The translations under genes were made by a program, and so were the position numbers. From the IMG/VR virus record IMGVR_UViG_3300015202_000050, positions 1 to 22,786 of that record: a DNA stretch of 22,786 nucleotides; one strand, 5' to 3'. The DNA is from a virus. Positions 1-22,786 of the stretch are shown piece by piece; within the stretch, counting starts at the first letter, position 1; the number at the start of each line of letters is the position of its first letter. The notes under the pieces were generated by a model, which saw nothing but the letters and a program-made list of their open reading frames with translations, was not told the origin of the DNA and ran no database searches.

Positions 1-324
1 AGCGGCGCCCGGATTGGCCGAGAGACCCGTTCCCCCGTTCGAGACAGCAACCGTACCGGTGAGCTTGGCCGCACCTACGGACGTGACGTCCGCGTCGACG
101 ATGAGCGACGCCGCCGCGTTCTGCGCACCCGCGACGATGTGCGGGATGCCCGTGCCGGTGGGGACCGTGCCGGCGCCACCCGTCACCGTCACGGTCGTAC
201 GCGCGTTCGTTGGATCGTCAACGACGGTCGCACCGACGAAATTGATCGTAGTCTCGGGGGCTAGCGCCACACCGCCTACTTGAACCGATGAGTAGGCCTT
301 GAAAAACTTATCTAACCAAGACAT
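1..324 (-). CDS. Tail-fibre-like protein, N-terminal part (runs off left edge)
   Basis: The frame opens with ATG at 324 and stays open for 108 codons to the window edge, so the 3' end is missing. A GGAAAGG-type ribosome binding site lies about 7 bases before the ATG. The product starts MSWLDKFFKAYSSVQVGG, continues with Thr/Val/Gly-rich beta-type sequence (ARTTVTVTGG) and reaches VSNGGTGLS near the edge. The NGGTGLS motif is common in phage tail fibres and other virion appendages, which is the main basis for the call. It is the last visible gene of the minus-strand tail block and is separated from the preceding fibre-type gene (826-1647) only by the plus-strand metzincin gene. It is likely distal tail fibre or fibre-associated protein; receptor specificity cannot be judged from this fragment. 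Confidence 0.7.
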   Translation of the reverse strand, partial: MSWLDKFFKAYSSVQVGGVALAPETTINFVGATVVDDPTNARTTVTVTGGAGTVPTGTGIPHIVAGAQNAAASLIVDADVTSVGAAKLTGTVAVSNGGTGLSANPGAA

Positions 325-369: not shown

Positions 370-825
370 GTGCGCCGCCGTCAAAGAGGCATGCGCGGGT
401 TCTTTGGGGTTGTGTTCGCGGTGGCGTTGTTCGCGTGCGGCGGGCCGGTGGAGGGCCCGTTGCACGTCCGCTTCGTTGGCTCACCAGAGGGGCTCGTGTT
501 CACCGAGGACGCCGCGGCGCAGTGGAACGCCGCTTGCGGGCGCATCGTGGTCGTCTTGTCGGATGAGGGGTGTCCTCTTGAGGAGGTTGGGGCTATCGCC
601 GGAGTAGACGTAACTGGACTGACCTCGCTGCACAACGCGTCTCCCCAGTGGATGCACGTCGATGCCCGCCAGTCGTTGCCCGTACGCAAGGAGAACATCG
701 CGCACGAAATTGGACACGCGCTGGGCTTCGGCCACTACGCCCACCCCGGCATCATGAACATTGTAACCGACCCGTCAAAGGAGCCCCAGGCCGAAGATTG
801 CGACCTAGGGCTCCTGCGTTTTTAG
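370..825 (+). CDS. Metzincin-type zinc metalloprotease lipoprotein (phage cargo gene)
   Basis: This is the only convincing plus-strand gene. From GTG 370 the product has 151 residues; ATG 391 (144 residues) is an alternative, with AGAGG only 1 base upstream. The N-terminus is a lipoprotein-type signal, MRGFFGVVFAVALFAC followed by GGP, with the lipobox Cys at residue 16 counted from ATG 391. The C-terminal half has HEIGHALGFGH (H105, E106, H109, H115), the HExxHxxGxxH zinc site of metzincins, followed by HPGIMN, whose Met122 fits the Met-turn. The chain is short and has Cys49, Cys61 and Cys137, which could form a disulfide. It is predicted to be an exported, lipid-anchored endopeptidase; the substrate is unknown. 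It is divergent from the fibre gene on its left and convergent, with no spare base, with the one on its right. Late transcription runs antisense through it, so it is probably expressed separately, as morons are. It could alternatively act on the cell surface during infection. Confidence 0.82.
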   Translation: MRRRQRGMRGFFGVVFAVALFACGGPVEGPLHVRFVGSPEGLVFTEDAAAQWNAACGRIVVVLSDEGCPLEEVGAIAGVDVTGLTSLHNASPQWMHVDARQSLPVRKENIAHEIGHALGFGHYAHPGIMNIVTDPSKEPQAEDCDLGLLRF

Positions 826-1647
826 TTACGGGCGGTACTGCATCACACGGATGCGCGAGCACGGTCCAGAGGTGCCCGCGGTCGAGCCGAGCACCGTCGC
901 GGACGAGGCACTACCCTGCACCTTCACAGTCACGGATCCTCCGCCTGTGACGGGATAGACTCCCGAGGCGGTTCTGGCGAGTAGGTCGGTGGACGTGACC
1001 TGCTGTTGGTTGTTCAAATTCAGTCGCACCGTTGTGCCGTTGTCGATTGCCGTCAGGTCCGTTAGCAGGGTCTGAGTTATGGTCGCGTTCGCGACCATCC
1101 AAGCGTCAAACACCAGGACGTCCCCAATGGCAACGTTACTCAGGGTAATGCTCATGCCCGGCACGTCTCCGAAGGTCGTAGGCACGGTCGCGTTCGTAGT
1201 GAGAATCTGCTGAGTAATCGTCACGAGGCGATTCGTAACCTGCGCGAGATTGATCTTCGTACTAAGCGAGAGGGCGGCAAACTGGATCTTGTCTGCTAGG
1301 TTCGAGAGATAGGTGTTCAGCTGATCGACGGTGAAGACATCGCCATTGCTCGGCTGCGCCGCGAACGGCAGAAGGTTGGTGTCCTTCGCAGTGCCACCTC
1401 CGGCGTACGCGCCATTGCCAACAGAGCCCGTGAGCGTAAACGATGTCGACCCCGTGACTGCGATAACGAACGTGCCGTTCGCAGCAGTGTTGCCGGTGGC
1501 TCCCGTGATGACCACCGTGTCGCCGTTAGCGTAGTTGTGCACGGCGGACGTAGTGATCGCAATCGGCGTGGAGTTCGTCGCGTTGGTGATTGTGGTGGTG
1601 GCAAACTGCGTGATGTTCGCGGCGTTGCCTTGGTAGGGGCTAGACAT
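826..1647 (-). CDS. Tail-fibre or tail-tip protein with one E1-FCCH-like module
   Basis: The product has 273 residues, starting at ATG 1647 with AGG about 6 bases upstream. Residues 27-87 form a compact beta-type module with the pattern PIAITT...GDTVVITGATGNTAANGTF...FTLTGS.GNGAY..GGT. Phage proteins with this pattern are often annotated as E1-FCCH-like. Residues 100-150 look helical (VDQLNTYLSNLADKIQFAALSLSTKI), perhaps a trimeric coiled segment. The C-terminal 120 residues are beta-rich and end in SRIRVMQYRP. The gene follows the gpI-like protein after 9 bases, the usual place for a fibre or collar protein. Its stop codon abuts the stop of the convergent metzincin gene. The virion role is inferred from position and composition; no catalytic motif is visible. 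Confidence 0.65.
   Translation of the reverse strand: MSSPYQGNAANITQFATTTITNATNSTPIAITTSAVHNYANGDTVVITGATGNTAANGTFVIAVTGSTSFTLTGSVGNGAYAGGGTAKDTNLLPFAAQPSNGDVFTVDQLNTYLSNLADKIQFAALSLSTKINLAQVTNRLVTITQQILTTNATVPTTFGDVPGMSITLSNVAIGDVLVFDAWMVANATITQTLLTDLTAIDNGTTVRLNLNNQQQVTSTDLLARTASGVYPVTGGGSVTVKVQGSASSATVLGSTAGTSGPCSRIRVMQYRP
1387..1569 (-). repeat. E1-FCCH-like module, copy in fibre-type protein
   Basis: This segment encodes residues 27-87 of the 273-aa tail protein. It shares the pattern GNTAANGTF...FTLTGS.G.GAY..GGT with two segments of the gpJ-like protein (3225-3401 and 3804-3983). The resemblance extends to the DNA: on the plus strand all three contain closely similar stretches around 'gtgccgttcgc'. 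Confidence 0.7.
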
Positions 1648-1656
1648 AAGAGCCTG

Positions 1657-2823
1657 TCACGTCCCGGTTGGGACATAAGATTGTTGATAGATCGCAACAC
1701 CGTCACAGACGACCGAGAATTTATTTAGCCCGGTCGTGCGTGCCGGGACGCTTTGGGCTCCTACGGTCTTCGCCCACGCGGCCCAATTGCCGTCGGGGTT
1801 GCCTGCACCGATGGAGGACAACGGAGAAAATTCGGCTCCCGGAACTCCAGTGCCACCCCCGAAGGCGAAGACGATCCAAGGGAACGACGTATGCGCAGAC
1901 TTCCAGGTTCGCACTAAGGATCGGAGCCCTGCCACGTAGCCGGAGGATTGGTTGCAGCCCCAAGCCATTGTTGCGACGTTGGCGCCACCCCAAGTCAAGC
2001 TGGGTGTGCCCCAAGCGGGCGCGGGACCGATGGATGGATAAGACCCTACAGCCCACGCTAGGGATCCATTGTTCACGTCAGACACCGCTGATGGATTGGC
2101 GATGACAACCGACGTAGGCGAGACCACAGACGCGATGGTAAACACCCCGTTGTTCGCCGACGTTGCAGCCCCTGTAATCGTCAAGACTCTTGTGGCTGCG
2201 GTCGTCGGCACACCCGACAAACCTGTGACGGCAGAGAAGCCATTCACCGGCGCGCCAATGGAGGCGGCCGCGCCGGTCGTGCCAGGGACCACGGTGAAAT
2301 ACAAAACAAGATACGCCGATTCGTTCGTATAGAGTCCGTCCCAATTCCAGTTCGCAGGGGCCGTACGCAGGCGCGCAGGAGGACCTCCTAGCTGAGACGT
2401 ATTGTAGTACGTGTCCCATGCAGAGTAGGCCCCTCCGGGTGTGGACGTGACTACGGTTCCGATGGGGACTTGGCCGGCGTACGTGGTAGGGGTCGAAACG
2501 TATCCGAGGACCTGCTGCAAGATCGAACGATTTGAGCCCGCCCGTTGCCACGTATCAAAGGCTCGTTTGAGCCGTGATGCGAACGCGGCGTTTGCTTCGT
2601 TCGGGCCTTGAGCCATGACCCGATCGTTGCCGAGATACGGCAATGCGGATGCGTCTCCTCTTCCGGGCAACCTCGCTGTAATGGCTTGGTTGAGCTTCTC
2701 GAGCAAGAGATCGGAAGAGAGCCCAATGGTGTAAAGGATCCTTTCCGCTACACCGCCTGAAAGCCACGGAGGGGAGATCTGCTTTACTACGTCCCTTTGC
2801 TGATGACCTAGATCAGTAGCCAT
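1657..2823 (-). CDS. Baseplate/tail protein, P2 gpI-like (Mu gp48-like)
   Basis: The product has 388 residues. The start ATG (2823) shares one base with the stop of the gpJ-like gene (TAATG), implying translational coupling. Residues 25-110 (ILYTIGLSSDLLLEKLNQAI ... AFASRLKRAFDTWQRAGSNR ... ILQQVLGY) follow the usual N-terminal plan of gpI-type tail proteins, which sit where the baseplate wedge meets the fibres. Residues 158-170 (NWNWDGLYTNESA) and 296-320 (YVAGLRSLVRTWKSAH, then PWIVFAF) match the conserved C-terminal region of the same group. Between them, residues 195-257 are an inserted beta module (LTITGAATSANNGVFTIASV...NNGSLAW). A gp48-like protein next to gpJ is the normal Mu/P2 order. 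The family call rests on motif pattern and position. Confidence 0.72.
   Translation of the reverse strand: MATDLGHQQRDVVKQISPPWLSGGVAERILYTIGLSSDLLLEKLNQAITARLPGRGDASALPYLGNDRVMAQGPNEANAAFASRLKRAFDTWQRAGSNRSILQQVLGYVSTPTTYAGQVPIGTVVTSTPGGAYSAWDTYYNTSQLGGPPARLRTAPANWNWDGLYTNESAYLVLYFTVVPGTTGAAASIGAPVNGFSAVTGLSGVPTTAATRVLTITGAATSANNGVFTIASVVSPTSVVIANPSAVSDVNNGSLAWAVGSYPSIGPAPAWGTPSLTWGGANVATMAWGCNQSSGYVAGLRSLVRTWKSAHTSFPWIVFAFGGGTGVPGAEFSPLSSIGAGNPDGNWAAWAKTVGAQSVPARTTGLNKFSVVCDGVAIYQQSYVPTGT
2053..2241 (-). repeat. NNG-type beta module inserted in gpI-like protein
   Basis: It encodes residues 195-257 of the gpI-like protein: LTITGAATSANNGVFTIASV, then a hydrophobic strand, then VNNGSLAW. It resembles the E1-FCCH-like modules nearby in layout (a GxANNGxFxI core followed by a second strand pair) but is a distinct variant. 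Confidence 0.55.
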
Positions 2824-15395: not shown

Positions 15396-16402
<1,007 letters not shown>

Positions 16403-16406
<4 letters not shown>

Positions 16407-22421: not shown

Positions 22422-22786
22422 ATCCAACTCCAAGCAATACCCACTACACGAGATAGACCGCATGCCCCTCACCGTGCGCACGGGAGTAGCTTTCAGAATT
22501 CGCGTTACGCGTCTTCCGTGGCCGTGCGGCGCGGCCGTTGTGTCCATATGGACGGGAGTCAAATATCGATGGCCACGTTAGCGGCCAGGGACTTTCGATT
22601 CCCAGTTCTTCGTTTAGGAGTCGAACCCAATACCACCCCGTTATATTGGGGCCGCTCTTCCATTGGCGTACCGAAGAATATTTTGCCTACCCCTACCTAC
22701 TGAACGAGATGCACTTTTCTGCATGGCGCGGCGCGTTGGTACGGGGTGGGGCCCAGCTGGCCGCGACCTCCCGAGCCGGCGGTGGG
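22422..22786. other. Region upstream of the late block without a convincing gene
   Basis: Apart from the tRNA-like element at 22606-22677 I see no supported gene here. An open frame continues the 71-aa ORF upstream to about 22562 but lacks a ribosome binding site. The last 55 bases are markedly GC-rich. A small palindromic hairpin, ATGCA-GAAAAG-TGCAT, lies near 22708-22723 on the minus strand. A promoter for the late block could lie here or beyond the right edge; I could not identify one. Confidence 0.4.
22606..22677 (-). tRNA. tRNA-like element with distorted D and anticodon arms
   Basis: The minus strand reads as a 72-base cloverleaf. The acceptor TCTTCGG pairs with ACGAAGA at six of seven positions, followed by T8 A9. 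The T arm is TTGGG-TTCGACT-CCTAA, with the conserved TTCGA loop and a G-C closing pair. The D loop has the conserved AATGGAA. Two faults are seen: the D stem CGCC pairs with GCG only if one A is bulged, and the anticodon stem GCCCC/GGGGT closes an 8-base loop, AATATAAC. Taken as a 7-base loop the anticodon would be ATA. CCA is not encoded. It may be a decayed or divergent phage tRNA. Confidence 0.5.

What the first reader, a model, noticed from the sequence alone, without database searches (positions are those of the whole stretch)
370..825. Metzincin lipoprotein gene inserted antisense in a phage tail-fibre region
A complete lipoprotein signal, HExxHxxGxxH zinc site and Met-turn candidate are seen on the plus strand between two minus-strand fibre-type genes. 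Its stop abuts the convergent gene with no spare base, so the late transcript must run antisense through it. This is the layout of a moron: expression in the lysogen, repressed or opposed during lytic growth. A surface-anchored protease could alter receptors, block superinfection or modify the host's envelope. Phage-borne metzincin lipoproteins are not a well described class as far as I know.
Basis: partly seen in the sequence, partly recalled or inferred. Interest (0 to 1): 0.65.

Follow-up and report, generated by a model that had tools for sequence, protein, structure and literature searches.

The report
Antisense lipoprotein protease beside phage fibres
A small lipid-anchored zinc-protease gene sits backwards among a phage's host-recognition genes, and unrelated phages carry a relative of it in the same kind of place, which suggests that phages may trade a protease that inactivates their own receptor so that infected cells cannot be infected again.

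Summary
Window 370-825 (+) encodes a 151-aa predicted lipoprotein (VALFAC lipobox) with HEIGHALGFGH and a Met-turn-like PGIM. Its TAG abuts the TAA of the convergent tail gene 826-1647. Every identified structural gene of the record is on the minus strand. Sequence-profile evidence for a metzincin is motif-only (Pfam Matrixin 18.6 bits, cut-off 24). An AlphaFold model made with eight phage sequences (pLDDT 60) puts karilysin first in Foldseek, and all 50 listed structural alignments are metzincins.

Relatives were found by sequence alone. Contig G003 (42% identity over 89 aa) has a lipoprotein metzincin antisense between two fibre-type genes, with a 4-nt overlap at its 3' end. G001 and G002 (28%, themselves related) have one convergent to the late block that ends in a giant fibre-like gene. 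Among ORFs of 100 aa or more, the metzincin is the only protein the window detectably shares with them.

This resembles the receptor-blocking lipoproteins Llp (T5) and Rtp45 (Rtp), also opposite-strand beside receptor-recognition genes. Best reading: a mobile fibre-locus gene for superinfection exclusion, probably by receptor proteolysis. Fold and layout are well supported; substrate, timing, activity and host are inferred.

The parts
370..825 (+). metzincin-type lipoprotein gene (151 aa; the true start may be ATG 391)
391..438 (+). lipoprotein signal peptide MRGFFGVVFAVALFA|C; acylated Cys codon 436-438
   Evidence: sequence; lipobox scan
703..735 (+). zinc-binding motif HEIGHALGFGH (residues 112-122)
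   Evidence: conserved in the relatives; Pfam Matrixin match 109-134
745..756 (+). PGIM, candidate Met-turn (Met129, 7 residues after the third His); Leu in the G001/G002 relatives
823..828 (.). abutting convergent stop codons (TAG on +, TAA on -)
1..324 (-). N-terminal part of a tail-fibre-type gene, cut off by the contig end; divergent from the metzincin (45 nt to GTG 370, 66 nt to ATG 391)
   Evidence: no convincing family match
826..1647 (-). tail/fibre-type protein with E1_FCCH-like repeat, convergent with the metzincin
1657..2823 (-). baseplate-proximal tail protein, weakly similar to tail proteins of Myxococcus phage Mx4 and Thermus phage Riverbug
2823..4574 (-). baseplate-type protein with FCCH repeats, weakly similar to Mx4 p64

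Best explanation
Window 370-825 encodes a lipid-anchored metzincin-fold protease that belongs to a mobile gene tied to the receptor-binding (fibre) locus of phages. It most likely inactivates the phage's own receptor: it is exported, lipidated and held in the host's outer envelope, where the protease domain clips (or the folded domain simply obstructs) a surface or outer-membrane receptor that the adjacent fibre proteins recognise. That would exclude superinfecting relatives and stop progeny from sticking to debris. Its own opposite-strand transcript would let it be made when the fibre genes are not (early in infection or in a lysogen), and its position would let it be exchanged together with matching fibre genes. 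Shown: the ORF, signal sequence and motif; homology to three lipoprotein metzincins in unrelated phages; the recurring fibre-side antisense layout; agreement of a low-confidence model with metzincins. Inferred: zinc binding, catalysis, substrate, timing, the exclusion role. The metzincin-fold lipoprotein part I hold at about 0.93, the mobile fibre-locus gene at about 0.75; the confidence given is for the receptor-inactivation role.
For: Homology beyond the motif: the part before HExxH aligns to the G001 relative at Z 7.6 and to the G002 relative at Z 6.7 against 500 shuffles, none reaching the score; hhalign 96%; 42% identity, E 1e-10, to the G003 relative. The G003 gene (38991-39443, ATG start) lies antisense between + strand fibre-type genes 38203-38994 and 39524-40432, with a 4-nt overlap at the 3' end and an 80-nt divergent gap; the window has 0 nt and 45-66 nt. 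In G002 it is convergent to the 1528-aa fibre-like gene that ends the late block; in G001 it is convergent to that block, with one gene between. Blastp of all window ORFs of 100 aa or more against G001-G003 gives only the metzincin, so backbones differ while gene and kind of site recur. Model 2: karilysin is first in Foldseek (E 1.1e-3, TM 0.63) and all 50 listed VIA rows are metzincins, best Z 8.4. Precedents: T5 llp lies on the opposite strand beside the receptor-binding gene oad; rtp45 lies on the opposite strand beside rtp44 and the J-like fibre gene; both products block receptors (PMC9586334, PMC12685063), and exclusion factors are said to be encoded at the receptor-binding locus (PMC9586334, PMC11990801).
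Against: Llp and Rtp45 are small, non-enzymatic plugs; no protease-type exclusion lipoprotein came up in the literature searched. Pfam and NCBIfam matches are below their cut-offs. The model is of modest confidence (pLDDT 60, pTM 0.59) and holds no zinc. G001 and G002 have Leu at the Met-turn position. Host and receptor are unknown. No promoter-like site precedes the gene.
Confidence: 0.4

Rival explanations
1. Accessory lysis factor: the envelope-anchored metzincin cleaves an envelope lipoprotein or wall enzyme late in infection and eases lysis, as the phage-derived Mtz/Tim pair does in Listeria.
For: Listeria Mtz (metzincin) cleaves the lipoprotein Tim and sensitises cells to phage lysis; prophage copies lie downstream of holin and lysin genes (PMC8235301).
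Against: The gene is antisense to the late genes in the window, G001/G002 and G003, so late expression would be opposed; no lysis gene was recognised beside it and no second credible lipoprotein (Tim-like partner) was found in the window. The Listeria protein aligns with the query at only about 23% with a chance-level E-value.
Confidence: 0.17
2. Lysogenic-conversion moron that benefits the host cell (surface proteolysis of environmental or rival proteins) and has nothing to do with phage adsorption; the fibre locus is only a tolerant insertion site.
For: G001 and G002 encode a tyrosine recombinase-like protein, so at least that lineage may be temperate; morons often sit between late genes with their own transcription unit (general knowledge).
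Against: The recurring position beside fibre genes in unrelated phages is not explained by tolerance alone, since other gaps between late genes would serve as well. No integrase was found in G003 or the window, though the window is a fragment.
Confidence: 0.25
3. A catalytically dead metzincin-fold lipoprotein that acts only as a receptor plug, like Llp.
For: Met-turn replaced by Leu in G001/G002; the known exclusion lipoproteins are plugs.
Against: All three His and the Glu are kept in every relative found, which a plug would not need; solved structures of PrtC Met-turn mutants (M226L, M226I, M226A, M226H; listed) show that the fold stands without the Met.
Confidence: 0.12
4. Chance ORF or antisense artefact of a tail gene.
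For: Overlapping ORFs exist on the other strand (381-698, 481-744).
Against: Homologues with 28-42% identity, lipobox and motif in unrelated phages; + strand codon-position pattern.
Confidence: 0.01

Closest known systems
Llp, lytic conversion lipoprotein of phage T5 (also Cor of T1-like phages and Rtp45 of Rtp)
   Same: Small phage lipoprotein; in T5 and Rtp on the opposite strand beside the receptor-binding/fibre locus; proposed same outcome, receptor inactivation.
   Different: Those are small non-enzymatic plugs (Rtp45 about 6 kDa) with no zinc motif described; here there is a metzincin domain, and exclusion has not been tested.
Mtz/Tim of Listeria monocytogenes and listerial prophages (PMC8235301)
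   Same: Phage-derived metzincin acting at the envelope.
   Different: Mtz is secreted and its partner Tim is the lipoprotein; near the lysis genes; no significant sequence similarity to the window protein; no Tim-like partner found in the window.
Matrixins / M10 metzincins (karilysin, MMPs) and snapalysin (M7)
   Same: HExxHxxGxxH, Met-turn-like residue, best model matches.
   Different: Small (about 129 aa mature), lipid-anchored, phage-encoded; family-profile scores below cut-off.
Metzincin-like domain in phage tape-measure proteins (contig behind L012; weak match in Arthrobacter phage Shambre1)
   Same: Related zinc-protease domain in a phage (38-39% identity for L012).
   Different: Part of a tail protein, not a lipoprotein and not antisense.

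Membership tests
Metzincins (clan MA(M)) | HExxHxxGxx(H/D) zinc motif | tested here: met
   HEIGHALGFGH, residues 112-122
Metzincins (clan MA(M)) | Met-turn after the third ligand | tested here: inconclusive
   PGIM with Met 7 residues after the third His; G001/G002 relatives have Leu
Metzincins (clan MA(M)) | metzincin fold | tested here: inconclusive
   Model of pLDDT 60: strand-helix-strands-active helix-helix order; karilysin first, Z 8.4 to MMPs; low confidence and no zinc
Peptidase_M10 (Pfam PF00413) | score over the curated cut-off | tested here: not met
   18.6 bits against 24; G003 relative 22.2; L012 domain 32.9, over the cut-off
Bacterial lipoproteins | N-terminal signal with lipobox and Cys | tested here: met
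   MRGFFGVVFAVALFAC by inspection and pattern scan; no SignalP was available
Superinfection-exclusion lipoproteins (Llp/Rtp45 type) | lipoprotein gene at the receptor-binding/fibre locus on the opposite strand | tested here: met
   window, G003 and G001/G002 against T5 and Rtp; in G001 one gene lies between
Superinfection-exclusion lipoproteins (Llp/Rtp45 type) | blocks adsorption of the phage to its receptor | not testable with these tools
   needs an adsorption or plating test
Superinfection-exclusion lipoproteins (Llp/Rtp45 type) | sequence homology to Llp, Cor or Rtp45 | not tested
   no direct alignment to those proteins was made; they carry no metzincin domain by their descriptions
Mtz/Tim pair | TIMP-like lipoprotein partner gene next to the metzincin | tested here: not met
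   no second credible lipoprotein among window ORFs; the contig ends in the neighbouring fibre gene

The most novel reading that the evidence does not exclude
Enzymatic superinfection exclusion: a lipid-anchored metzincin that destroys the phage's own protein receptor and travels between unrelated phages together with, and antisense to, the receptor-binding genes.
Probability: 0.27. Interest if true: 0.75.

Novelty: new variant of a known kind. Interest (0 to 1): 0.55.

Why it matters
Known receptor-blocking phage lipoproteins act as plugs. A protease version, kept antisense beside the fibre genes in unrelated phages, would be an enzymatic way to shut the door and a genomic marker (fibre-side, opposite-strand lipoprotein) for finding exclusion factors in metagenomic phages with unknown hosts. 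If the protease cleaves the receptor, its substrate would name the receptor of otherwise uncultured phages.

Tried and rejected
Single-protein scans of IMG/VR and of the genome collection with exact 8-residue words found no relative; tblastn in phage and plasmid collections gave chance-level hits only. A strict zinc-motif DNA pattern found nothing. A first alignment with Listeria and Acinetobacter matrixins supplied the HExGH word that reached G001/G002; the set L010/L008/L013 looks metzincin-like, but its pre-motif part is not convincingly related to the query (Z 2.0 for L010). Further scans added nothing new. The genome collection could not be searched by taxon, so relatives in bacterial chromosomes were not tested. 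L003 was rejected as a phage relative (repeat-domain similarity only). The window's TerL was sought in the records behind the loci without a match. The first AlphaFold model (pLDDT 50) gave no significant Foldseek match. The Acinetobacter 'phage' record with matrixins lies among ordinary host-type genes (dnaK, purK), so it was not counted as a phage precedent. No sigma-70-like promoter precedes the gene. Host assignment to Myxococcota rests only on weak tail similarity to Mx4 and a lipobox style, so it is left open.

Full report
What is there. The window is a whole IMG/VR virus record of 22,786 bases, linear, probably a fragment. Every gene identified in it is on the minus strand and reads as the late block of a contractile-tailed phage: TerL, portal, S49 head protease, major head protein, sheath (DUF2586), tape measure, baseplate, fibre-type genes. 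The exception is ORF 370-825 on the plus strand. It encodes 151 aa (or 144 from ATG 391) with a lipoprotein signal, HEIGHALGFGH and PGIM. Its stop codon abuts that of 826-1647. Its codon-position GC is coding-like. The motif occurred twice in 200 shuffles of the whole window.

Is it a metzincin? Pfam Matrixin matches only residues 109-134, at 18.6 bits against a cut-off of 24; NCBIfam is far below its cut-offs. Phage relatives raised the evidence. An alignment-based scan of IMG/VR brought in eight loci and a later one a ninth. Four proteins matter most: those in G001 and G002 (L006, L007), G003 (L027), and the domain in L012. The part of the window protein before the zinc motif aligns with the G001 protein at Z 7.6 and the G002 protein at Z 6.7 against shuffles, and hhalign gives 96% to their alignment. 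G003 is 42% identical over 89 residues, E 1e-10. A second AlphaFold model, of the mature domain with eight sequences, reaches pLDDT 60 and pTM 0.59 with the strand-helix-strands-helix order of metzincins. Foldseek's first five rows are karilysin entries (E 1.1e-3 to 2.8e-3), and the 50 rows shown by VIA are all metzincins, best Z 8.4. Z near 8 alone can be a common arrangement; the uniformity of the list and the motif together make a metzincin fold very likely. Zinc binding and catalysis are not shown.

The recurring layout. G003 (46,961 bases) carries its metzincin lipoprotein on the opposite strand to its late genes, between a fibre-type protein (38203-38994; PHROG tail fiber) and 39524-40432, just after the baseplate genes. 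Its 3' end overlaps the convergent gene by 4 nt and its start is 80 nt from the divergent one; the window has 0 nt and 45 or 66 nt. In G002 the gene is convergent to the 1528-aa fibre-like gene closing the late block; in G001 it is convergent to the same block, with one gene between it and the 1314-aa fibre-like gene. These fibre assignments in G001/G002 rest on size, position and a repeat match (DUF5907 in G002), not on a PHROG hit. A blastp of all window ORFs of 100 aa or more against those of G001-G003 found only the metzincin. The relatives were chosen by metzincin similarity, so the shared gene is expected; its position is not. A rough estimate by me, taking two or three fibre-side slots among about 60 genes, puts the chance of both lineages landing there near 0.002, before strand is counted.

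How it may work. Exclusion lipoproteins have the same arrangement in known phages. In T5 the lytic conversion lipoprotein gene lies on the opposite strand, directly beside oad, the receptor-binding protein gene. In Rtp, rtp45 lies on the opposite strand beside rtp44 and the J-like fibre gene. Llp and Rtp45 change their receptors (FhuA, LptDE) so that the receptor-binding protein cannot bind (PMC9586334, PMC12685063), and receptor-binding proteins and exclusion factors are said to share that locus (PMC9586334, PMC11990801). By analogy, the window protein is proposed to inactivate the receptor of the neighbouring fibres, here with a protease domain. All zinc ligands and the catalytic Glu are kept in the relatives, which favours an enzyme over a plug. 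The chain from layout to exclusion to receptor cleavage is inference.

Lifestyle. G002 has a tyrosine recombinase-like protein (sub-cut-off Pfam match with a typical C-terminal part) and G001 a 30% identical one, so that lineage may be temperate. None was found in G003 or in the window, which lacks its early region. Expression could therefore be in lysogens, early in infection, or both.

Known kinds. The nearest metzincin precedent is Mtz/Tim of Listeria, secreted metzincin plus lipoprotein, linked to lysis (PMC8235301). It differs in anchoring, partner, location and sequence. I found no paper on lipid-anchored phage metzincins or protease-type exclusion, within an open-access library only. 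Relatives in bacterial chromosomes could not be surveyed.

Verdict. The claim about lysogen expression and lytic opposition is untested, and T5 shows that an opposite-strand lipoprotein beside fibre genes need not mean lysogeny. I rate the finding a new variant of a known kind.

Noticed in passing
L012:5926-6312: A metzincin domain (Pfam Matrixin 32.9 bits, over the cut-off) embedded in a phage tape-measure-type protein, 38% identical to the window protein; Arthrobacter phage Shambre1 gives a weak match in its tape measure protein.
   Followed up: partly
L008:5169-6279, L013:5156-6267: In phage contigs, a lipoprotein-like ORF of 172 aa lies directly upstream of a signal-peptide metzincin, recalling the Mtz/Tim pair.
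   Followed up: no
L009:5407-6231: A protein with a peptidoglycan-binding domain followed by a full Matrixin domain (67 bits) in a viral contig.
   Followed up: no
L016:3025-3459 (- strand; G001 43025-43459): A second lipoprotein-like ORF (LLAAC) lies among the structural genes of G001, with no counterpart seen at that place in G002.
   Followed up: no
window 15396-16406: ORF between the head protease and the head genes with long Asp-Glu repeats, whose antisense frame reads as poly-Ser; low-complexity region.
   Followed up: no
window 22605-22677: ARAGORN reports a tRNA-like gene on the minus strand without a readable anticodon.
   Followed up: no
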